Shown here piece after piece: positions 41,150-53,300 of a stretch of 64,000 nucleotides of DNA; the stretch's first letter is position 1, and each line of letters begins with the position of its first letter. This DNA is from Xylophilus sp. GW821-FHT01B05 (GTDB lineage Bacteria; Pseudomonadota; Gammaproteobacteria; Burkholderiales; Burkholderiaceae_C), in assembly GCA_038961845.1 (NCBI GenBank), contig CP152408.1, positions 868,001 to 932,000 on the forward strand. Reading direction: 5' to 3'. The notes beneath the pieces were generated by a model. The model was given only the letters and a program-made list of their open reading frames with translations. It had not been told where the DNA came from and did not search any database. A program made the position numbers and the translations under genes.

Positions 41150-41151
<2 letters not shown>

Positions 41152-42080
41152 GCTGGGCTGCCTATCTGGCAGTGAACATGCCGTCGTCGAGGCAGTGTTG
41201 GCTGGAGATTTTCTGAGCTGCCTATCCGGCAGTGAACCTGCGGGGATTTTTGGCGGCGGCGGTGGGCAGTTTCTGAGCGGCCTATCCGGCAGTGAACCAG
41301 GCTCAGGCCGAGGCCCTGCAGATGCAGCATTTCTGAGCTGCCTATCCGGCAGTGAACAAACGCGGGGTTAGCTCCCAGCGCAGCGAGTTTTTCTGAGCTG
41401 CCTATCCGGCAGTGAACCCAGGAGATTGCCCGCGAGGCGCTGGTGGTTGATTTCTGAGCTGCCTATCCGGCAGTGAACGGCGACTGATCGGGTTTCACCG
41501 ATGTCCCGCATTTCTGAGCTGCCTATCCGGCAGTGAACCCATGCTTACTCCGTCCAGATGAATTCGATGCTTTCTGAGGTGCCTATCCGGCAGTGAACGA
41601 CAAGGCGGTGGAGCTGGGCAATGCTGCATACTTTCTGAGCTGCCTATCCGGCAGTGAACATCGATACGGCGCCGCGCCTTGCGGCCTTCCTGTTTCTGAG
41701 CTGGCTATCCGGCAGTGAACGTAAAACGTGCCGATGATGGCGCGGCTGGAGATTTCTGAGCTGCCTATCCGGCAGTGAACTTTGCGCGCGCGCGGGCTAT
41801 TGCATGCGTCGTTTTCTGAGCTGCCTATCCGGCAGTGAACGTGGTGGCAAATCCACTACCCGCCCAACGGCTTTTCTGAGCTGCCTATCCGGCAGTGAAC
41901 TCAAACATGGCCGTTTTTGAGACCGAGGGTTTTTTCTGAGCTGCCTATCCGGCAGTGAACATCCGGGCCAGTTGGACCGCATGTATCCAACGTTTCTGAG
42001 CTGCCTATCCGGCAGTGAACCGCTGGTTGGTGTAGAAGTTCTGGCTCTGGGCTTTCTGAGCTGCCTATCCGGCAGTGAAC
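41150..42080 (-). CRISPR. type I-F CRISPR array, leader-distal segment (16 repeats)
   Basis: Sixteen 28-bp repeats, minus-strand consensus GTTCACTGCCGGATAGGCAG then CTCAGAAA, with 15 spacers of 32-33 bp. Repeat starts: 41150, 41210, 41270, 41330, 41390, 41451, 41511, 41571, 41632, 41693, 41753, 41813, 41873, 41933, 41993, 42053. The repeat at 41150 is degenerate (five changes), marking the trailer end. Three others carry one change each, at 41270, 41571 and 41693, all in the stem. This segment was cut from its leader by the IS66 element at 42092. Confidence 0.97.
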
Positions 42081-42091
42081 GCCGAAGGGAT
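42081..42091 (-). other. left part of the IS-split spacer plus target duplication
   Basis: GCC then GAAGGGAT. The last 8 bases (42084-42091) are repeated at 44596-44603 on the other side of the IS, the 8-bp target duplication of IS66-type elements. Joined with 44604-44625 this makes a 33-bp spacer. Confidence 0.93.
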
Positions 42092-42143
42092 GTAAGCGCG
42101 CGGCAAACCCATGTTGACCGCCGCTGGCGGTCATGGCTGATGA

Positions 42144-43664
42144 TCAGATGCTGGCAGGTTGCCAGCGATGTGGCAGCAGCTCATCGATGCGGCCGGCCTT
42201 GTGCGTGGGCAGCCGGGTCAGCACATCCTTGAGGTAGGCATACGGGTCATGCTCGTTCATGCGCGCCGACTGGATCAGGCTCATCACGGCAGCTGCCCGC
42301 TGGCCCGCGCGCAGGCTACCGGCAAACAACCAGTTCGAGCGCCCAAGGGCAATGGGCCGGATCTGATTCTCGATCCAATTGTTATCCGCCGGCAGCTGCG
42401 GGTCATCGACGAAGCGCGTGAGCGCAGCCCATCTTTTGAGGCTGTAGTCCAGTGCCTTGGCCGTCGCCGAGTTGCCCGCCACCTGCTGGCGCTGCAGCAC
42501 CATCCATTGATGCAAGGCATCCAGTATCGGTCGGCTGTATTGCTGGCGTACCTGCAGCCGCTCTGGTGCCGCTAGGCTCTGAGCTTGCCGTTCGATCTCA
42601 TAGACCCGGGCGAACTGCGCCAGGGCCAATTCGGCGATCTGGCTCTTGCCCGCCGCGTGCAGCTCGAAGAACTTGCGCCGGGCATGCGCCAGGCAGCCGG
42701 CCTCCGTCACGCCTTGAGCAAAGCTGGCTTTGTACCCGGCGTAGTCGTCGCAGATCAGACTGCCGCGCCAGTCCCCCAGGAAGATGCGGGCATGTTCCCC
42801 GGCGCGTGACTCGCAGAAGTCATAGACCACGGCACGCGTGGCTTCAAACGCTCCTGGGGCATACGCCCACAGGTAGGCCCGGTGCGTTTTACCGTTGCCC
42901 GGCTTGAGCATGGCCACCGGGGTCTCATCACCGTGCAACACCCGGTGGCCGAGCACCTCGGCCTTCAGGGCATCGACCAGCGGTTGCAGCCGCGCACCGC
43001 AGGTGCCCACCCATTGCGCCAAGGTGGATCTTGGAATCGCCAGACCGGCGCGACCAAAGATGTTCTCCTGCCGGTACAAGGGCTGGTGATCGGCGTACTT
43101 GGCCACCAGCACCTGGGCCAGCAGGCCGGCTGTCGGGATGCCTTTGTCGATGACGTGGGCGCCCACCGGCGCCTGGGTGATCGTCTGGCACTGGGCGCAG
43201 GCCCACTTGCCACGGATGTGGCGCTCCACCGTGAAGACGCCGGGCACGTAGTCCAGCTTCTCGGCCACGTCCTGGCCGATGCGCTTGAGCTGACAGCCGC
43301 AACCGAGCGTGCCGCAGGTGGTGGATTCGGGTTCATGGAGGATCTCGCGCCTGGGCAGGTTCGCCGGCAGCGGCGTGCGCTTGGGCTGCTGTTTGTCGGT
43401 GGCAGGTTGAGCCGCTCGTAACTGCTCGATCTCGTGAGAGACGGCGGCCAGATCGCTGTCGAGCTCTTCTTCCAGCAGGCTCCTCTGATCGGCGCTGTGC
43501 CGCTCGGATTGGGCGGCGAACTTCAACTGCTTGAGCAGCGCGCACTCATAGGTGAGCTTCTCGTTGAGCGCGCGCTGGTGACGCAGTTCGGCCAGCAGGC
43601 GCTGGGTCACTTCGCGCAGTTGCTCTGCGTCCAGTTCGCTCAGGGCCTGCTCGTCGATCACCAT
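42144..43664 (-). CDS. tnpC: IS66 transposase TnpC (DDE enzyme)
   Basis: 506-aa transposase. N-terminal coiled coil LREVTQRLLAELRHQRALNE, a zinc-ribbon-like block (CGTLGCGC, then CAQC) at about residues 115-160, and the DDE catalytic core: first Asp in HRVLHGDETPVAM, second in LICDDYAGY, Glu in DNNWIENQIRPIALGR. The C-terminal extension HDPYAYLKDVLTRLP is typical of IS66. Full length, no frameshift. Ends 50 bp from the left terminus of the IS. Confidence 0.96.
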   Translation of the reverse strand: MVIDEQALSELDAEQLREVTQRLLAELRHQRALNEKLTYECALLKQLKFAAQSERHSADQRSLLEEELDSDLAAVSHEIEQLRAAQPATDKQQPKRTPLPANLPRREILHEPESTTCGTLGCGCQLKRIGQDVAEKLDYVPGVFTVERHIRGKWACAQCQTITQAPVGAHVIDKGIPTAGLLAQVLVAKYADHQPLYRQENIFGRAGLAIPRSTLAQWVGTCGARLQPLVDALKAEVLGHRVLHGDETPVAMLKPGNGKTHRAYLWAYAPGAFEATRAVVYDFCESRAGEHARIFLGDWRGSLICDDYAGYKASFAQGVTEAGCLAHARRKFFELHAAGKSQIAELALAQFARVYEIERQAQSLAAPERLQVRQQYSRPILDALHQWMVLQRQQVAGNSATAKALDYSLKRWAALTRFVDDPQLPADNNWIENQIRPIALGRSNWLFAGSLRAGQRAAAVMSLIQSARMNEHDPYAYLKDVLTRLPTHKAGRIDELLPHRWQPASI

Positions 43665-43746
43665 GGCTGGCAGTGTGCCCGCTCACCCTGGGTCCGGCCA
43701 TTGACGCATCTCCCGATTGCCACGGCCACGCCCCTACGCCGACGAT

Positions 43747-44079
43747 TCAGACCACGGTGATGGCACCTTGCGAGCCCACACGCTGCCAGGGCAGGCCCAG
43801 CACCAGGGCGTTGAGCTGGGCGTGTTCCAACGCCACGTTCGGACTGCCTGCCGGTGCCCAGACGAACTTGCCCTGGTGCAGTCGGCGCGCAGCCAGCCAC
43901 AGTCCCACGCCGTCGTGCACTAGCACCTTCAGGCGATTGGCGCGCTGGTTGGCAAAGACGTAAGCGTGGTGCGGCTGGGCAGAGCCGAAGGTGGCGATCA
44001 CCCGCGCCAGCGCGGTGTCGGTGCCTGCGCGCATATCCAGCGGGGTGGTGGCCAGCCAAGCCGCGTCAATCCTGATCAT
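43747..44079 (-). CDS. tnpB: IS66 accessory protein TnpB
   Basis: 110-aa IS66 Orf2-like protein needed for transposition. Family blocks: MRAGTDTALARVIATFG and RANRLKVLVHDGVGLWLAARRLHQGKFVW. Lies 7 bp after tnpA and 82 bp before tnpC on the same strand. Not related to the TnpB of IS200/IS605. Confidence 0.93.
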   Translation of the reverse strand: MIRIDAAWLATTPLDMRAGTDTALARVIATFGSAQPHHAYVFANQRANRLKVLVHDGVGLWLAARRLHQGKFVWAPAGSPNVALEHAQLNALVLGLPWQRVGSQGAITVV

Positions 44080-44086
44080 GTGCGGA

Positions 44087-44524
44087 TCACCGCAGTAATT
44101 CGCGCAGCATCTGGGCGCACTCGGTAGCAGCGGATAAGGGCCAGTGCACGGTCACGGACATGCCGGGGCGCTGGCATTCGATGCGGATGCCGTCCGCTGA
44201 CGTTGGCAAGGGCGCTGATGGTAGCTCCCCAGTAGACGCCGGCGGTACTACGCTCAGCTCGATGGGGATAAAGGCCGGGGGTTGGGAAGCAACGACCGCA
44301 GTGCTGACGCCAACTTCAAGACGGTGAAGTCCCTGCGCCCATTCCTTGAGCCAGCGGTGCAGTACGTTGGCGTTCATGCCATGTTGCAGGGCTACCGCAG
44401 CAATGGACGTCCCGGGCTGTCGGCAGGCGGCCACCAGTTCGGCCTTGAACTGCGGGGTATAGGTGCGGTGCGTACGCCGCTGCGCATAGCGCGGTGTCTG
44501 AGGGTCTTTGAGCATCGTGTCCAC
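44087..44524 (-). CDS. tnpA: IS66 transposase subunit TnpA (HTH)
   Basis: 145-aa IS66 Orf1-like helix-turn-helix protein: RTYTPQFKAELVAACRQPG followed by SIAAVALQHGMNANVLHRWL, the IS3/IS66 Orf1-type HTH. First gene of the element, starting 71 bp inside the right terminal repeat. Confidence 0.93.
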   Translation of the reverse strand: MDTMLKDPQTPRYAQRRTHRTYTPQFKAELVAACRQPGTSIAAVALQHGMNANVLHRWLKEWAQGLHRLEVGVSTAVVASQPPAFIPIELSVVPPASTGELPSAPLPTSADGIRIECQRPGMSVTVHWPLSAATECAQMLRELLR

Positions 44525-44595
44525 GCCAATGTTGCGTGCACACGATCTTGCTCAGCCTCACCACCTCATTCAAGATGGGTTCGCCAGCCGCTTAC

Positions 44596-44625
44596 GAAGG
44601 GATCGCCGCGGGCAACGCGCAGACA
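44596..44625 (-). other. right part of the IS-split spacer, with target duplication
   Basis: GAAGGGAT (44596-44603, duplicate of 42084-42091) followed by 22 bp up to the first repeat of the leader-proximal segment. Removing the IS and one duplicate restores a spacer of 33 bp, the normal size in this array. Confidence 0.93.
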
Positions 44626-45735
44626 TTTCTGAGCTGCCTATCCGGCAGTGAACACAAGCGTCACTCGGAGTTTGACGCCGAGCACTTTCTGAGCTGCCTA
44701 TCCGGCAGTGAACATTCATGGCGTCGCCGATGGTCTGCGCCGTTTTTTCTGAGCTGCCTATCCGGCAGTGAACTGCCCGGTATCGGTGGATCGGGCCGCT
44801 CGGGCGTTTCTGAGCTGCCTATCCGGCAGTGAACCGCGCAGCCAGGCCTTCTGCGCTGGCGCGGGTTTTCTGAGCTGCCTATCCGGCAGTGAACCGGGCG
44901 CGGGCCTGGTTGGTAGCGCGATGAGTTTTCTGAGCTGCCTATCCGGCAGTGAACAGTTCGAATGTTTGGGCATGGCAAGCACTCTATTTCTGAGCTGCCT
45001 ATCCGGCAGTGAACATGAATGAAATCGCCGCGACGCAGCGTGCAAATTTCTGAGCTGCCTATCCGGCAGTGAACTTCTGCGTCTCGCGTTCGTCTGCGCT
45101 GGAAATTTTCTGAGCTGCCTATCCGGCAGTGAACATGGTGGAGGGGGTGGGGAGCGGTGCGGCGCGTTTCTGAGCTGCCTATCCGGCAGTGAACCGTCCA
45201 CGATGGAGGCGTCGACGGCCAGGGCATTTCTGAGCTGCCTATCCGGCAGTGAACGCAGTGCCAGGGTGTTGGCGTGGCCGTCGTACTTTTCTGAGCTGCC
45301 TATCCGGCAGTGAACATCTCGAATATCAGGGCACGCGTTCGACCCTTTTTCTGAGCTGCCTATCCGGCAGTGAACTCTTGAACATGTTGGGTTTTGGTGG
45401 CGGTGGCTTTCTGAGCTGCCTATCCGGCAGTGAACCATCACCACGGCGCGCTGCAGCCTGGGCTGGCTTTCTGAGCTGCCTATCCGGCAGTGAACCTGGA
45501 TGCCGCGACGTTGCAGGACTGCCTGCTTTTCTGAGCTGCCTATCCGGCAGTGAACGCCGCCTACGGTTCTCTACCCTTTGCCGAGCATTTCTGAGCTGCC
45601 TATCCGGCAGTGAACGCGGGCGCACTTCGAAGCCCGCTGGCGCAGGTTTTCTGAGCTGCCTATCCGGCAGTGAACGCATGCTCAGGCCTCGATCTTGGCC
45701 CCGGCCATTTCTGAGCTGCCTATCCGGCAGTGAAC
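44626..45735 (-). CRISPR. type I-F CRISPR array, leader-proximal segment (19 repeats)
   Basis: Nineteen 28-bp repeats, all identical by eye (minus strand GTTCACTGCCGGATAGGCAG then CTCAGAAA), with 18 spacers of 32-33 bp. Repeat starts: 44626, 44686, 44746, 44807, 44867, 44927, 44987, 45047, 45107, 45167, 45227, 45288, 45348, 45408, 45468, 45528, 45588, 45648, 45708. The stem CTGCC/GGCAG is the Csy4 site. The array is transcribed leftward from the leader at 45736-45872. Confidence 0.98.
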
Positions 45736-47503: not shown

Positions 47504-48565
47504 TCAGTTGAAGGAGAGCAGCTCGTCGGCCGCATGACCGGTTGGTGCGTTCTGTGGCACCGGCACCAGCGGCCGGTAGTCGTTGCGGCAGCGGTACAAG
47601 CCGGCATCGGGCTGGTGGTTGGCGTACCACAGCAAATCAGCCAGTCGCGTCAGGCGGTGTGGTGCGATCCACTGGCCGGTGGAGTACAGGCTTTCCACAA
47701 AGCGCATGCGCGTGGTCTGGTCGCGGCCATGGCGAACGGCTCCGGCGGGGTAGAGACTTGACAGCGCGCCGTACCCGACGGGGATAGGCACGATCCAGCC
47801 ATCGTCATGGTCGTGCTGCCATTCCACCTTGCCGTCGGGGGGCGGCGCGCCACCAGAGGCAGGGCGTGGCCGCCAGTTGAACCGCGCCAGATCGAGCCAT
47901 GCATCCAGCGCATGCGCCTGGGGATCCTGGGCGCGAAGCTGGGCCAGGCGTTGCTGCAGCAGGTCATCGCGGCTGACCAGCGCGAAGCCCGGTAGCCACT
48001 GCCGACGCAGTGCCCTGAACTGCTTCGCCGCATCTTCCGGGTCTTGTGCAATGCGAACCAGCTCAGGGCGGATGCGCCGCCCAGGGCCGCGTACAGGCGG
48101 AAGCACGCTACCGCCAGCCACCCGCATGGATGCCACGATTTCCCCCACCCGCCGGGCCAGTGCTTCTTGCGCAGCTTCCTCCCGCAGCAAAGGGTTGTCC
48201 GACGGGCTGCCGTTGACACCAATCACTAGTGTGATGTCCAGGTGGATACGGCCTTCTTCCACGATGGCGGCCGTGCTTCCATCCTTGCCCACCGGGTTGC
48301 GGCTTAGGTGGAAAGTACGCACGTAGCCCGCGTCGTTGACCTGTTCCTGGTGTGCATGGCAGATGGCGCCAATACCGACCGGTCGCAGTGGAATGTTCTC
48401 TGCGGCCAATTTGCGCCCCAACGCCCATGCAAAGCCCAAAAAGGCGCTCATGGCGGGAAAGCCATGCGTCATGGGGCTGGATATGGCATTGGCGTTCTGG
48501 ATACGCAGGTGGGGCAGCACGAGTAGGCCCCCACAGTGCGGCAGAACTGCTGTGGTGCCAGTCAT
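47504..48565 (-). CDS. csy2: Cas5f/Csy2 subunit
   Basis: 353-aa Csy-complex subunit that, with Csy1, forms the tail holding the crRNA 5' handle. Family blocks: [49 protein letters not shown] and the late [15 protein letters not shown]. Somewhat longer than the 327-aa P. aeruginosa protein. ATG at 48565 overlaps the csy1 stop (ATGA). Confidence 0.95.
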
Positions 48566-49941
48566 GCTTTTCCCTCCCGTGCAGGGATGTAGGTGGGGGC
48601 GCCGAGCCGGCCGCGCATGCCATGCAATTCGCTGGCCCAGCCCGTATCGCGCTCGTCCACCAGCAAAGCCTTCTTCCACTCGCGCTGAGTCACTTCGCTG
48701 CCGTGCAGCAAGTTGTCCAACTGCTTGTTGAGCCAGTTGCCGAAGCGGTGGCCAATCTGTGCAGGCCAGTCCTGCTGCATCCACTGGGCAAGAAAGTCGG
48801 CTTCGTCCGCCAGCGCTGCACGCTCCGGGTCCAGCCATAGCCGCTCGGCTTCGTGCAAGTCGCAGCGCTTGTCCGCACTCCAGCCGGCCTCAAGCCCGTG
48901 CTGGAATCGGCCGGCCATTTCCAGCAGCTCATCAATCAGTGCCTCGATGGCTTCGTCCACCCGGTTACGGGTGTCTTTGTTGGGGGACGGGTCGGATTTC
49001 AAAAAATAGAGGAGGTCTCGCACGATGGTGCGGACTTCCTTGCGGTACCCGTACACCTTCTCGAATACCGAGTCCATGTGCCACGGTGTGCTCACGTCCT
49101 GCGATTTCCACGACGGTGGCAGCGATCCCAACAGATAGTTGCTGCCGCCCCGTTCGCTGTTGAGCTGCGAGATGTTCTGGGGCTTGGTACCCCCGAGCTT
49201 TTGCACGGCCAGGTTGGGGTAATCGTGGTAGGCGCGACCATGCGCCCGTTTGTCGCGGCGGGCCTGCCGCGCTTCCTTGTTGGCATCGCCAAAGCGGTCG
49301 TCCTGCAGTGTCAGGAACGCAGCATGGGCCAGAGAGCTGGCATACAGCGGAGCCAGCAGATGGTAGGCGTCGTCGTATGTGGGATCGGTGCCTTCGGCCA
49401 GCCAGTACAACTGCTTGGCCTGCGTGTGGCTGGAGACCGCATCGCCGCGTGGTTGAGTAAGGCCCACAAACGCGTCACGCCACGCCGTGGCCTGCGCGGC
49501 ATCGTCGCTCAATGCGGCCTGCGCGTCGGCATCGCCCGTCAGCAGCCATTCGAGCAACGTGCGGCCATCCACGTCCAGCTTGAGCAGCTTGTAAACGTCG
49601 AGCGCGGCGGCGTTGCCCACCACGTCGCTGGCGAACTGCGGGCCCAGTACGTGGCTGCCCAGTTCTGTGCGCTGAGGCAACTGGCTGGGCGGAACATACA
49701 GGTTGGTGCCCCGCGCATCGGGATGGATGGGCTTGAGCGAATGGGTCACCGCTTGGATCTGCGCCACACGGCGAGCCGCGTCAGCCAGCCATGTACTGCG
49801 CTGATGCTGTGCCGTCAGTGCTGTACGTTGAGGGTCGTCGGGCGGGAGCTTGTCGGTCTTGGTAGCCAAGCGTACTTGCAAGAACGCTTCAATGGCCGCG
49901 TGGACGCGCTCACGCCGCCCTGAAGAAGGGGGGGCAGACAT
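48562..49941 (-). CDS. csy1: Cas8f/Csy1 large subunit
   Basis: 459-aa Csy-complex large subunit that recognises the CC PAM and starts R-loop formation. Start at 49941 (MSAPPSSGRRERVHAAIEAF) with AAAGGAAT upstream. Family blocks include KTDKLPPDDPQRTALTAQH, YWLAEGTDPTYDDAYHLLAP, KLGGTKPQNISQLNSERGG and PPSWKSQ. It is preceded by a 370-bp regulatory gap with a predicted promoter, hairpin and mini-CRISPR. Confidence 0.95.
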   Translation of the reverse strand: MSAPPSSGRRERVHAAIEAFLQVRLATKTDKLPPDDPQRTALTAQHQRSTWLADAARRVAQIQAVTHSLKPIHPDARGTNLYVPPSQLPQRTELGSHVLGPQFASDVVGNAAALDVYKLLKLDVDGRTLLEWLLTGDADAQAALSDDAAQATAWRDAFVGLTQPRGDAVSSHTQAKQLYWLAEGTDPTYDDAYHLLAPLYASSLAHAAFLTLQDDRFGDANKEARQARRDKRAHGRAYHDYPNLAVQKLGGTKPQNISQLNSERGGSNYLLGSLPPSWKSQDVSTPWHMDSVFEKVYGYRKEVRTIVRDLLYFLKSDPSPNKDTRNRVDEAIEALIDELLEMAGRFQHGLEAGWSADKRCDLHEAERLWLDPERAALADEADFLAQWMQQDWPAQIGHRFGNWLNKQLDNLLHGSEVTQREWKKALLVDERDTGWASELHGMRGRLGAPTYIPAREGKA

Positions 49942-50044
49942 AAGATTCCTTTGCTCTTGACGAGCAGAAAGTAGAATCCCCTGAGCAACCAATGCCCAGG
50001 GGCGTTGAGAAAACGGGTTAAGCCGTGATCAACGTAATAACTTT

Positions 50045-50063
50045 TCGTGTTTGATAAACACAG
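50045..50063 (-). promoter_or_regulatory. short palindrome in the csy1 5' region
   Basis: GTGTTTGATAAACAC (6-bp arms, 3-bp centre) about 105 bp upstream of csy1, in an AT-rich stretch. It could be a regulator site; no partner is known. Confidence 0.3.
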
Positions 50064-50103
50064 GGTCCTCCTATCGGCGCAGCTACGCAGCTATTGGTTG
50101 TAG

Positions 50104-50138
50104 AACTGCCCAGACCGCTCCAACGGTCTGGGCAGTTT
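50104..50138 (-). promoter_or_regulatory. perfect 14-bp inverted repeat at the csy transcript start
   Basis: AACTGCCCAGACCG, six bases, then the exact complement CGGTCTGGGCAGTT. It overlaps the expected start point (about 50134) of the promoter at 50141-50169. It may act as an operator or a 5'-end hairpin of the csy mRNA. No T-run follows on either strand beyond TTT, so it is a poor terminator. Confidence 0.65.
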
Positions 50139-50140
50139 GC

Positions 50141-50169
50141 ATTGTGGGGGTCTTCGGCTGATTGGTCAA
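50141..50169 (-). promoter_or_regulatory. csy1: predicted promoter of the csy operon
   Basis: On the minus strand TTGACC (50164-50169; 5 of 6 to the -35 consensus) and CACAAT (50141-50146; 4 of 6 to -10) are 17 bp apart, the best sigma-70-like match in the gap. The start point would be near 50134, about 190 bp before csy1. The CC PAM of the mini-CRISPR target site at 50172-50199 lies 2 bp upstream of the -35 box. Confidence 0.65.
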
Positions 50170-50171
50170 TA

Positions 50172-50199
50172 CCACTGCTCTTTTTCTTTCAGACCACTG
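50172..50199 (+). promoter_or_regulatory. self-target site A of the mini-CRISPR guide (CC PAM + protospacer)
   Basis: PAM CC at 50172-50173, protospacer from 50174. Against the mini-CRISPR spacer (50266-50291), positions 1-5, 7-11, 13-17 and 19 are identical; 6, 12 and 18 differ; from 20 on the match is lost. Positions 6, 12 and 18 are those displaced from pairing in Cascade-type complexes. The site abuts the csy -35 box. Confidence 0.7.
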
Positions 50200-50221
50200 C
50201 TCTTTCGCTTGATGGTACATG
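50194..50221 (+). promoter_or_regulatory. self-target site B of the mini-CRISPR guide (CC PAM + protospacer)
   Basis: PAM CC at 50194-50195, protospacer from 50196. Spacer positions 1-5, 7-10, 12-15 and 19-23 match; 6, 11, 16, 17, 18 and 24 differ. It shares the 13-base direct repeat ACCACTGCTCTTT with site A, 22 bp away, and lies 17-42 bp upstream of the first mini-CRISPR repeat, where that RNA's own promoter is expected. Confidence 0.5.
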
Positions 50222-50237
50222 CGGCAGCTACACTGTG

Positions 50238-50313
50238 CGGCACTGCCGCATAGGCAGCTCAGAAAACTGCCCTTTTGCTTTCGGGTACTTTGTTCACTGC
50301 CGCATAGGCAGCT
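50238..50313 (+). ncRNA. creR: CreR-like mini-CRISPR guide RNA (two degenerate repeats, one 26-nt spacer)
   Basis: Repeat-like unit 1 (50238-50265) keeps CACTGCCGCATAGGCAG and the complete 5' handle CTCAGAAA; only its first three bases and one loop base differ from the array repeat. Unit 2 (50292-50313) keeps GTTCACTGCCGCATAGGCAG, i.e. the full Csy4 hairpin up to the cleavage site, then diverges. Both have the same G-to-C loop change (GGATA to GCATA), so they evolved together. The spacer is 26 nt, exactly 6 (one Csy3 footprint) shorter than 32. Cleavage by Csy4 would yield a normal-ended short crRNA. Orientation is opposite to the array and antisense to the cas2-3 3' end; unit 2 overlaps the cas2-3 stop. 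No clear promoter seen. Confidence 0.7.
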
Positions 50314-53300
50314 ACCGTTCCTTGGAGAACCCTAGCAGGGGGTGGAATCTCCACCCTTGCGTCGCGTCCGGCAAACTGACTACCGCAAAGCGGCGCGCGC
50401 ATTCATAGAGCGAAAGATCCAGTGCCTCGGCATGCTCACGCAGCGCCGCCATGAAATCGACCTCGCCCCATGGCGCAATGCGTTCGCCTTGAACCGCCGT
50501 TGGTGGCACACGGTGGTTCTGGCTACCATCCACCAGCACATAGTCCAGTTCTCCCCGGCGATCCCCTTTGACGACCCGGTGTAGCTCATAGTCTTCTTCA
50601 TCCTCATTGGGGAGCAACACCAGGTCCAGACGGAGAAGCGGGTCGTACCGGAAAGGCTGTTGCTGCGCCAACACGCCGGACAGATGCGCATCGGGCGAAA
50701 GCCAAGAGGTGGCGGCGTTGAGTGGTGCAGCAAGGGCCGACGGTGTAATTGCTTGCGGCAGCATGCGCGCTGCCAGCCGCGCATGTTCCAGGTCGACCAA
50801 TCGCTCCCGCGGGGCCAGCGGCGCATCGGTGCGCGGCAGGATGCGCGGGCGGGCGTCGATGACGTCGCGCTCTTCAGGTGCCAACAGGCGTTGAAGGTCA
50901 TGGTGCATGAGGCGGAAATCGTGGTCGTTCTCAAACCCCGGTTTGCAGAATGCAGCTTGCCCTGGGTGATCGAAGTGACGCAGGTTGTGATTGAAGATCA
51001 GCAGGTTGGGTTTTTCCACGGGCGCGGGCCGATGGCGTCGGATACGGCCGGCCAACTGGATCAAGGAGCGCATGGAGGATGGCTCTGCCACGGCCCAGTC
51101 GTAATCATGGTTGCGGCCCACGTCCGCAATAGGAGACCCCAGCACGATAAAGAGCTGATCCTGCTCCGCATAGCCATCCAGCCGCTGCCGGATGTCGGGC
51201 AAGTCGAATACCGAAAATTCCTTTTGGCGGTCGAGTGCTGTGTCGAGCCGGTACTCGATGGCCGAGCGCATCAGCAGTGGAAATTGCGAGTGGTACACGC
51301 ACAGATGGATGCGCGTGTTCTTGAGGGCGTCTTGGGCATACAAGGCCAGCGCCACGTCAAAGAGCGGATCGATGTTGGCCATGCGTACCAACCCAAAGCT
51401 CACGCGCTTGCCGCTGTGCGGGTCGATGCTGCGGTGTTGTTGGTGCAGGTGCCATGCCGCTCCACGCACTTGGTGCGCGAACTGGCCGCGGCGCTCGCCG
51501 CGCTCCAGGCCGGAAAACGGCGCATCGATGAGCTGGGCTCGCCGACGCACGGTTTCCTGCCCCAGTCGTGTGTGGCGCGCCTGTGCAAATTGCAAATGCG
51601 CGACCCGGTAGGCTGTGGCGTCTGCACAGTTGTGTGCCGCGGTGCCGAACTCATCGAACCACGCGCAAACGATGGCGGGTTCTCGTCTGGCCCGCTCACC
51701 TCGGTGGCGCTGAAAGGCCCGCCGGCCCTCCAGGTAGGCCAGGAACAGGCCCTCGACCAGCGCCGGTGGCAAGGTGGCCGACGACAGCAGCACGCGGCTG
51801 CCCAGCAGGCCAGCCCAATGCACGAGCCGGGTCAAGGCGGGCAGGTCGTCGATATCGAAGTCGTCGATCTCATCAAGCACCAGGTCGCTGCTCATGAGTC
51901 GCAGCATCGGCGCTATCTGGTGCCCGCCACGCAGGCTCTCGGTAGCTGGGACCAGGTGGTCCACGGTGCATACCAACATAGGCGCAGCCAGCAGCGAGCG
52001 TACCTGCGGATCGGCACTGAGCCGTTGCAGCAAAGGGTGCTGGTCATTGCCTTCGAAGAGCACGCGGCCATCCTCGGGCAGCAGGTCCTGGCGCGATGCG
52101 GAGCCTTGCTGTTCGGCCTGTTCCGCGTAGAGATTGAACAAGGCGCGGCTGGCGGCGCCGCCCACCTTGATGGCCAGCTCGTCACCCGACAAATTCAGCA
52201 TGTCCCGGAAGGCGCGTCCTGTCTGCAGTGTCAGGGTGCGCAGGCCCATGGCGAAGGCGCAACGCATGCCTTGCTGAGGGTTCGACAGCGCGTGCATGAT
52301 GCGCGCGTTGGCCAGCGTCTTGCCGCAGCCGGTGGACGCCATGTTGACCAGGAATGCTCCCTGGCTGTCCGCACGTTCGCGCAGCGATGCCGCCAGATCG
52401 GTCGCCTTGTCCTGCCAGCGAAAGTGTTCGCTGTCGCTGCGCTTCTTGAGGCCCTTGTGGCGCAGCCGGGGCAGGTGACGCTCGATGCTCGGCAATGCAT
52501 GGATGGCCAGGCCCGCCTGCCGCTCCACACCGAGCAGATGCTCATCCAGCGTCTGGCAGAGGATCGATTGCTGGCTGGTGCCACGGCGGGTATTGGCCCA
52601 GAGCGGGTACGACGGGTTGAGCAAGGGCTTGCGTTCAGGCGCTGTGTCGTTCTGGAGGCTGGAGTAGTGGTGGTCGGCCAGCATCAAGCCCAGTCTGGCA
52701 ATGTGGGCGATGTATGGATCGTTCTGCCAATCGCTCGCTGCTGGCTGGTCCGCGAAAGCCAGCAGCCTCTTTGCCAGGCTCGCTGCGCGTTTGCGCCATG
52801 GTGTTGTGGTTACTGGCAAGCCATGGGGGAAGTCCCAGTAGGGCTCGATGGCTGCTCGGTCAGTGGTGTCGCAAGGCTCATTCCAGTGAGCGTCAATGCG
52901 TGCGGGCAGGTTGTGCAGCAATTCGGACTGAAAGTCGGGCACTCGTGTGCCCTGCCGCTTGTAGCCGCCATTTGTTCTATCGGGCACGGGGATCACCGGC
53001 AGGCGGTGGTGCGTCAGCACCAGCCAGCCGACGAGGCGCGCCAACGGCGGCATGGCTGCCAGGGGTCTGTTGTTCGCCGCCAGGCTGTCCAGCCCGTCGC
53101 GCAGCAAATGGTCTTCGGCTAGCCAGCTTTGGTCGTCTCCCGGTGTGGGGGCCATCAGCCGCTGCAGCCACTGGGCATCGCTGTCCTTTCCCACGAAGGC
53201 CTGAAAAAGACGGAGCGAAATCCATTCGTGGCGGTACAGGTTCTTGCTGCGGGGGCCGGTTGCTATCAGCATGCTCTGGAATACTTGGCAGGCTTTGCCC

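What the first reader, a model, noticed from the sequence alone, without database searches (positions are those of the whole stretch)
50166..50319. A mini-CRISPR next to csy1 whose spacer targets the csy promoter region: a CreR-type autoregulator of a type I-F system
Seen: two degenerate repeats with intact Csy4 stems flank a 26-nt spacer, in the orientation opposite to the array. That spacer matches 50174 onward, next to a CC PAM, at positions 1-5, 7-11, 13-17 and 19. The only mismatches up to 19 are 6, 12 and 18. Known: in Cascade-type complexes every sixth guide base is flipped out and need not pair; the I-F PAM is CC; Cas-regulating RNAs (CreR) that guide Cascade to cas promoters by partial pairing have been described in several CRISPR types. 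Inference: a Csy complex loaded with this short guide binds beside the csy -35 box and represses it without triggering cleavage, because pairing stops at about 19 and the guide is one Csy3 unit short. Mismatches confined to the three free positions are very unlikely by chance.
Basis: partly seen in the sequence, partly recalled or inferred. Interest (0 to 1): 0.95.

Follow-up and report, generated by a model that had tools for sequence, protein, structure and literature searches.

The report
CRISPR-guarded RNA toxin with leucine codons
Beside a bacterial type I-F CRISPR system lies a two-repeat mini-CRISPR whose guide matches, in blocks of five bases, the predicted promoter of a tiny gene of ten codons that include two in a row of the codon rarest in the surrounding genes; the mini-CRISPR is predicted to keep this likely toxin switched off only while the CRISPR proteins work.

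Summary
In detail: R1 50238-50265, a 26-nt guide 50266-50291, R2 50292-50319 on +, and a CC-PAM target at 50174 matched at 1-5, 7-11, 13-17 and 19. It and a second copy (50196) are the two best of 11,687 CC sites in the window. The layout recurs in 40 of 133 csy1 upstream regions, guide and target changing together; swapped guides reach the threshold in 2 of 1482 trials.

The interpretation needs changing. Between the target promoter and csy1 lie a 5' hairpin, AGGAGG, a 33-nt ORF (GTG TTT ATC AAA CAC GAA AAG TTA TTA CGT TGA) whose start codon sits in a hairpin, and a 3' hairpin: the anatomy of CreT, the RNA toxin of CreTA, published from the same cas3-csy1 gap of Acinetobacter. In 32 non-redundant ORFs AGA/AGG/ATA/TTA fill 54 of 63 places at codons 8-9 and 5 of 237 elsewhere. 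Here the pair is TTA-TTA, the rarest codon of the window's genes: a predicted leucine-type CreT, met in no paper I saw. A CreR-like effect on csy remains possible, since no csy1 promoter was found after creT. Toxicity and tRNA capture are untested; tRNA-Leu(UAA) was not located.

The parts
50238..50265 (+). creA psi-R1: degenerate first repeat with intact Csy4 stem and full 5' handle CTCAGAAA
   Evidence: Rfam CRISPR-DR4 E 2e-5
50266..50291 (+). creA guide, 26 nt
50292..50319 (+). creA psi-R2: 3'-handle part 19 of 20 as in the array, last 8 bases decayed; overlaps the last 8 bases of cas3
50229..50234 (+). predicted creA -10 (TACACT), 9 nt before R1
   Evidence: best -10-like hexamer lies 7-12 nt before R1 in 24 of 39 loci
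50172..50199 (+). target T1: PAM CC 50172-50173 and protospacer 50174-50199
   Evidence: best CC site of the window, score 15 of 15
50194..50221 (+). target T2: PAM CC 50194-50195 and protospacer 50196-50221; lies where a creA -35 would be expected
   Evidence: score 12, second-best CC site
50164..50169 (-). predicted -35 of PcreT (TTGACC), 2 nt from the T1 PAM
50141..50146 (-). predicted -10 of PcreT (CACAAT)
50106..50135 (-). 5' hairpin at the predicted start of the creT RNA
50067..50072 (-). Shine-Dalgarno AGGAGG, 5 nt before the ORF
50029..50061 (-). creT mini-ORF, 33 nt, GTG TTT ATC AAA CAC GAA AAG TTA TTA CGT TGA; bases 1-6 pair with 10-15
50035..50040 (-). tandem TTA-TTA, codons 8-9 of creT
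   Evidence: TTA is the rarest of 61 sense codons in 38 window ORFs (6 of 15,941)
49972..50002 (-). 3' hairpin followed by ATTCTA, the last element before the csy1 ribosome site
48562..49941 (-). csy1 (cas8f)
   Evidence: TIGR02564
47504..48838 (-). csy2 (longest ORF; the model starts at residue 105)
   Evidence: TIGR02565
46447..47607 (-). csy3 (longest ORF; the model starts at residue 49)
   Evidence: TIGR02566
45873..46496 (-). csy4 (cas6f), predicted to process CreA
   Evidence: TIGR02563
50312..53674 (-). cas3f
   Evidence: TIGR02562
53671..54678 (-). cas1f
   Evidence: TIGR03637

Best explanation
The mini-CRISPR at 50238-50319 is most likely creA, the RNA antitoxin of a CreTA module in the cas3-csy1 gap, whose guide matches the predicted promoter of a 33-nt ORF with tandem TTA codons (creT) and would hold that predicted RNA toxin off as long as the Csy complex works. 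Predicted steps: creA is transcribed rightward from a -10 beside R1; Csy4 cuts at both stems to give an 8-nt handle, a 26-nt guide and a 20-nt hairpin; Csy binds T1 behind the CC PAM, next to the -35 of PcreT, pairing in 5-base blocks to about position 19, and blocks RNA polymerase without cleaving. If Csy is lost, inhibited or titrated, creT RNA is made; its strong SD and GUG start often, ribosomes stall at UUA-UUA (codons 8-9), and the scarce tRNA-Leu(UAA) would be tied up, arresting the cell and punishing loss of the CRISPR system. Because no csy1 promoter was found after creT, the same binding may also tune csy expression (CreR-like). Shown: sequence anatomy, guide-target co-variation, codon-doublet conservation, rarity of TTA. 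Inferred: transcription, processing, repression, toxicity, tRNA capture.
For: (1) 40 of 133 csy1 upstream regions have a handle+stem guide with a CC-flanked match scoring 11 or more of 15 (41 by rule; L048 dropped by judgement as a GC-rich opposite-strand match). Guides of other loci reach 11 in 2 of 1482 trials, shuffled guides in 8 of 2000; with no PAM demanded the best site follows CC in 40 of 40. In 34 non-redundant guides positions 1-5 match in 100%, 7-11 in 82-100%, 13-17 in 71-91%, and 6, 12, 18 in 6, 26 and 21%. (2) A rule blind to codons finds 36 mini-ORFs in 171 regions, 32 non-redundant; AGA/AGG/ATA/TTA stand at codons 8-9 in 54 of 63, elsewhere in 5 of 237 (Fisher P 6e-44, relatedness ignored). 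With exact AGGAGG and no hairpin criterion: codon 8 21 of 25, codon 9 22 of 24, other positions 2 of 181. (3) TTA is the rarest of 61 codons in 38 window ORFs, 6 of 15,941, and no other in-frame TTA-TTA occurs in them. (4) Positive control: Acinetobacter sp. LoGeW2-3 (L249), one of three published I-F CreTA loci (PMC10097628, section 6), is recovered with score 14; its 33-nt ORF has AGA-AGG at codons 8-9 (ORF read by eye). (5) The window's start codon pairs 1-15, 2-14, 3-13, 4-12, the register in which mutations killed WCHA45 CreT (section 11). (6) In the sister Xylophilus sp. ASV27 the SD and ORF are identical and the guide differs only at 21 and 24, outside the block-paired part. (7) Archaeal CreT needs an SD, an efficient start, two consecutive rare codons and a stem-loop (PMC8501985, section 16); all have counterparts here.
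Against: In WCHA45 CreT each codon was changed synonymously and only changes at 2, 3 and 5 are reported to end toxicity, and its authors favour ribosomal RNA as target. The window's loop is shorter (3 nt on a 6-bp stem) and codon 3 is ATC where AGC, GGC or GAC is common. tRNA-Leu(UAA) was not found in the window's genome: of 47 Rfam tRNA hits I read 45 anticodons (Leu only CAG, CAA, UAG, GAG; the two unread are 73 and 76 bases long), and four patterns and one blastn with ARAGORN on their hits gave none. Not every mini-ORF has the doublet: both codons 8 and 9 are in the set in 28 of 36. Nine of the 36 have no guide found by my rule (L213 and L215 have one). TTA doublets: 7 of 23 low-TTA loci, 0 of 6 others, P 0.29. 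The 3' hairpin is terminator-like only weakly (1 found, 0.4 expected). No expression data.
Confidence: 0.76

Rival explanations
1. CreR only: the guide represses the csy operon itself, and the stretch between promoter and csy1 is just its leader.
For: csy1 lies directly downstream; no promoter scoring 9 or more between creT stop and csy1 in any of 36 loci; 15 of 40 loci have guide and target but no mini-ORF, nine with the target touching a -10-like hexamer 45-80 nt from csy1 (by eye). CreR is published for I-B, I-E and V-A (passage in PMC13131331); a I-F1 regulatory mini-array is recalled from Shmakov 2023, not read.
Against: Leaves unexplained a strong SD, a 33-nt ORF and rare codons fixed at codons 8-9 in many lineages, and an ORF identical in the sister.
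Confidence: 0.12
2. CreTA, but the toxin works as in WCHA45, by its start-codon hairpin poisoning translation initiation, and the codon doublet is secondary.
For: Same gap, same ORF length and hairpin register; in WCHA45 loop and stem changes, not codons 8-9, ended toxicity.
Against: The loop varies widely over the family while codons 8-9 stay rare; three different rare tRNAs are used, hard to explain by one RNA motif.
Confidence: 0.25
3. Leader-peptide attenuator: ribosome stalling at the tandem rare codons switches downstream hairpins and so csy1 transcription.
For: Tandem rare codons in a short leader ORF, a hairpin after it and csy1 behind it.
Against: The codons swap among Arg, Ile and Leu without a metabolic link to csy; the published relative in the same gap is toxic by itself; I did not find a clear terminator and did not look for an antiterminator.
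Confidence: 0.07
4. A decayed self-targeting array remnant with no function.
For: Repeats are degenerate at one end each.
Against: Exactly the functional ends are kept, and guides and targets co-vary in 40 loci.
Confidence: 0.01

Closest known systems
I-F CreTA of Acinetobacter sp. WCHA45, LoGeW2-3 and ANC3789 (PMC10097628; passages and sections 6, 10, 11, 15 read; supplements not seen)
   Same: cas3-csy1 gap; creA with two degenerate repeats, divergent from creT; CC PAM; mismatches at 6 and 18; 33-nt ORF with SD; start codon in a hairpin of the same register; AGA-AGG at codons 8-9 in LoGeW2-3.
   Different: Guide 26 nt here, 20 nt in WCHA45; TTA-TTA; 3-nt loop; two targets; target beside the -35 rather than downstream of the promoter; the parts I read report neither tRNA capture nor a codon 8-9 rule. 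The paper mentions about a dozen further homologs near related csy1 genes (supplement not seen), so some of my loci may be among them.
Haloarchaeal CreTA: H. hispanica (AGA-AGA) and H. hubeiense (AUA-AUA) (PMC8501985; abstract, passages, sections 16 and 19 read)
   Same: SD and start codon (SD in H. hispanica), two consecutive rare codons, stem-loop after the ORF, repression by a Cascade guided with partial pairing.
   Different: Type I-B, near cas6; rare codons right after or two codons after the start, not at 8-9; arginine and isoleucine, no leucine version seen.
CreR (known to me from passages in PMC12737573, PMC13131331, PMC12948488; the primary paper was not read)
   Same: crRNA-like guide with partial pairing to a promoter at the cas locus.
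   Different: Not coupled to a toxin gene (PMC12737573 passage); here a creT-like gene lies between promoter and csy1.
CRISPR-derived regulatory mini-arrays, Shmakov et al. 2023 (title seen in reference lists; content recalled, paper not held)
   Same: As recalled: mini-arrays with partial match to cas8 promoters or to cargo such as toxins, one I-F1 case tested.
   Different: Cannot compare loci without the paper; this locus or its relatives may be listed there.

Membership tests
CreTA (CRISPR-regulated toxin-antitoxin) | creA: degenerate repeat(s) that keep the 5' and 3' handles around a guide | tested here: met
CreTA (CRISPR-regulated toxin-antitoxin) | Guide partly matches a PAM-flanked site at the promoter of a small divergent gene at the cas locus | tested here: met
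CreTA (CRISPR-regulated toxin-antitoxin) | creT: strong translation start signals and a mini-ORF, as in the characterised toxins | tested here: met
   AGGAGG, GTG, 33-nt ORF
CreTA (CRISPR-regulated toxin-antitoxin) | Two consecutive rare codons (tRNA-sequestering type) | tested here: met
   TTA-TTA, rarest of 61 codons in 38 window ORFs
CreTA (CRISPR-regulated toxin-antitoxin) | The cognate rare tRNA exists and is limiting | tested here: inconclusive
   tRNA-Leu(UAA) not located
CreTA (CRISPR-regulated toxin-antitoxin) | CreT is toxic and is repressed by CreA with the Cas effector | not testable with these tools
   needs expression in cells
CreR | crRNA-like guide with partial pairing at the promoter that drives cas genes | tested here: inconclusive
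   csy1 is downstream and no other promoter was found, but creT lies between; use by csy1 untested
CreR | No toxin gene coupled to the guide (as in the PMC12737573 passage) | tested here: not met
   creT-like ORF in between; its toxicity is untested
Canonical CRISPR array | Near-identical repeats and 32-nt spacers | tested here: not met
   R1 and R2 differ from the array repeat at 4 and 7 of 28 bases; spacer 26 nt
I-F3 CRISPR-associated transposon guide | Transposition genes, no cas1 or cas3 | tested here: not met
   cas1f and cas3f are present

The most novel reading that the evidence does not exclude
A family of I-F addiction modules spread over Beta- and Gammaproteobacteria, in which the Csy complex holds down an RNA toxin that carries a scarce codon twice at codons 8-9 and has switched between arginine, isoleucine and, newly, leucine tRNAs; in the window toxin and csy operon share one promoter, so one guide both restrains the toxin and sets the Csy level, with a second target placed to limit the antitoxin's own promoter.
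Probability: 0.48. Interest if true: 0.86.

Novelty: new variant of a known kind. Interest (0 to 1): 0.75.

Why it matters
CreT and CreA RNAs are described as too small and too poorly conserved for systematic discovery (discussions of PMC8501985 and PMC10097628). The combined signature found here (block-of-five guide match behind CC, SD, start-codon hairpin, rare doublet at codons 8-9) makes them findable at I-F loci, names a tRNA to test for each, and separates CreTA-type from CreR-type loci in the same gap. If right, losing a I-F system is punished in many environmental Proteobacteria, which bears on why CRISPR systems persist and on what anti-CRISPR proteins set off. The natural targets also show how Csy treats its sixth positions: 6 is matched in only 2 of 34, fewer than the 25% of chance (P 0.004).

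Tried and rejected
Promoter for csy1 between creT and csy1: none scoring 9 or more in 36 loci, 4.2% in shuffles. Terminator reading of the 3' hairpin: only weak. Rfam family for creT: none; apart from the two repeats only isrG at E 0.69, chance. tRNA-Leu(UAA): not located; an intron, a masked stretch or a miss are possible. Link of TTA doublets with low TTA usage: 7 of 23 against 0 of 6, P 0.29. Guide length in strict 6-nt steps: rejected; by a relaxed rule 26 nt is the mode (13 of 36) but lengths run from 14 to 38. The promoter scan does not back the -10 reading of the nine CreR-like loci well: it picks the hexamer next to the PAM in 2 of the 9 (L030, L102), so that reading is by eye. Start-codon hairpin: pairs 2-14 and 3-13 do no better than re-dealt partners and 0-16 and 6-10 hardly or not.

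Held-out check: 38 further regions, many very distant. 10 have a strong guide-target pair, of which L216 (opposite strand, far off) is probably false. Two have a rule-based mini-ORF: L215 AGA-AGA at codons 8-9, L213 TTA-TTA at codons 7-8. L250 has guide and target but no ORF by the rule. The ORF of LoGeW2-3 (L249) is not caught by the rule, since its SD is AAGGGGGG; I read it by eye.

Sampling limits: csy1 was found in 42 of 399 family genomes (30 loci taken), 32 of 369 class genomes (30 taken), 20 of 399 order genomes and 23 of 398 phylum genomes; of 516 relatives in genome contigs the 80 best were kept. The sample leans to close relatives. L048 was dropped by judgement. Counts of co-variation were not corrected for relatedness beyond removing near-identical guides or ORFs.

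Full report
What is there. The window holds a type I-F locus on the minus strand: cas1, cas3, a gap of 370 bases, csy1, csy2, csy3, csy4 and the array. The nearest named relative found is Xylophilus sp. ASV27, Csy1 98% identical. In the gap, on the plus strand, lies the mini-CRISPR of the finding: R1 50238-50265, guide 50266-50291, R2 50292-50319. R1 keeps the 5' handle in full and R2 keeps 19 of 20 bases of the 3'-handle part, the divergent decay described for two-repeat creA genes (PMC8501985, section 19).

Guide and target. A second CC-flanked copy lies at 50196. They are the first and second of 11,687 CC sites of the window. T1 lies 2 nt from the -35 of the only promoter-like site of the gap. 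T2 covers the place where a -35 of creA would be expected, given the predicted -10 TACACT at 50229-50234; that it limits creA is a guess.

Related loci. From csy1 searches came 133 non-identical csy1 upstream regions. A rule asking for a Csy4-like stem, a handle and a CC-flanked match gave 41 loci; I dropped L048 (GC-rich, opposite strand) and kept 40. Guides from other loci reach the threshold in 2 of 1482 trials and shuffled guides in 8 of 2000; with no PAM demanded the best site still follows CC in 40 of 40. Over 34 non-redundant guides the match is 100% at positions 1-5, 82-100% at 7-11, 71-91% at 13-17, and 6%, 26% and 21% at 6, 12 and 18. Promoter-like sites near the target score 9 or more in 17 of 39 loci against 8.5% of shuffles, most often with the -35 two to five bases from the PAM.

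What the target promoter drives. In 25 of the 40 loci, the window among them, an SD and a mini-ORF stand between the promoter and csy1 (24, L127; recount). In the window: 5' hairpin 50135-50106, AGGAGG 50072-50067, ORF 50061-50029, 3' hairpin with ATTCTA 50002-49972. The stretch from the predicted RNA start to csy1 folds far better than shuffles (z -5.37, 0 of 200 as good). The window's start codon sits in a 6-bp stem of register 1-15, 2-14, 3-13, 4-12. Over 32 ORFs picked without a hairpin criterion, five core pairs of this register are formed in 81% of cells, slid registers in 15-66%. Pairs 4-12 and 5-11 exceed re-dealt partners (0.69 against 0.47, 0.62 against 0.37) and 1-15 slightly (0.94 against 0.81); 2-14 and 3-13 do not, since the start codon cannot vary. 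Support for the hairpin as a family trait is moderate.

Codons. By a rule blind to codons, 36 mini-ORFs were found in 171 regions; in 32 non-redundant ones AGA, AGG, ATA or TTA fill 54 of 63 places at codons 8-9 and 5 of 237 elsewhere. The pairs include AGA-AGA (12), TTA-TTA (4) and ATA-ATA (2). Both codons belong to the set in 28 of all 36; exceptions include L081, L130, L036 and L135. In the window the pair is TTA-TTA; TTA is the rarest of 61 codons in 38 window ORFs, 6 of 15,941, with no other tandem TTA in frame. By the few genes of each locus the doublet codons are usually, not always, among the rarest; L057 (CGG-AGG) and L113 (AGG-AGG) are exceptions.

Known relatives. The Acinetobacter I-F CreTA lies in the same gap, with creA divergent from a 33-nt ORF with SD, a CC PAM and a start codon in a hairpin (PMC10097628, sections 6, 10, 11). 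As positive control I read the LoGeW2-3 locus named in that paper (L249): the rule recovers guide and target with score 14, and its ORF, read by eye, has AGA-AGG at codons 8-9, which the parts of the paper that I read do not discuss. Archaeal CreT sequesters tRNAs through AGA-AGA or AUA-AUA (PMC8501985, sections 16 and 19). I met no leucine version in the listings and passages of my 10 paper searches; Shmakov 2023 is not held, and the primary CreR paper (known from passages) was not read.

CreR or CreTA. Fifteen of the 40 loci have no mini-ORF by the rule. In nine of them the target touches a -10-like hexamer next to the PAM (TATCAT, CATCAT, TATGAT or TACGAT) 45-80 nt from the csy1 match start; this is by eye, and the scan chose that hexamer in only 2 of the 9. 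Those loci fit CreR. The window does not; but as no promoter scoring 9 or more was found between creT and csy1 in 36 loci, csy1 is probably read from PcreT or from cas3, so CreA may also act on csy. I file the window as CreTA with a possible CreR side effect.

Limits. Transcription, processing, repression, toxicity and tRNA capture are inferred. Data on WCHA45 speak against a simple codon effect in that relative. tRNA-Leu(UAA) was not located: 45 of 47 tRNA hits were read by anticodon and none is Leu(UAA), and four patterns and a blastn found none. Counts ignore relatedness beyond removal of near-identical guides or ORFs.

Noticed in passing
window 41150-45735: The CRISPR array is split by an IS66-type element (transposase 42144-43664): exact repeats at 41210-42053 (12) and 44626-45708 (19), with four more degenerate repeats at 41150, 41270, 41571 and 41693.
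   Followed up: partly
window's genome (G000): tRNA-Leu(UAA) was not found among the 45 of 47 tRNA hits read, nor by four patterns and a blastn, although TTA codons occur in genes. Intron, masked stretch or miss.
   Followed up: partly
34 non-redundant guide-target pairs: Position 6 looks actively mismatched: match in 2 of 34, target base A in 28 of 34; 12 also favours A in the target.
   Followed up: partly
creT loci, e.g. window 50002-49972: The hairpin between creT and csy1 is often followed by ATTCTA or a near variant; perhaps a processing site rather than a terminator.
   Followed up: no
L066 (Lampropedia cohaerens): Guide and target are kept, but the leader looks like that of L057 and L072 with the creT ORF deleted, a possible step from CreTA to CreR.
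   Followed up: no
L034 (G313): The guide matches its promoter target at 24 of 26 positions behind CC, far more than elsewhere, with no obvious escape from self-cleavage.
   Followed up: no
L030, L039, L080, L094, L098, L099: The target starts 36-38 nt before the guide and so runs into R1 itself.
   Followed up: no
L057, L072: Their mini-ORFs read MRRKRKRRR, arginine and lysine throughout, ending in CGG-AGG or AGA-AGA.
   Followed up: no
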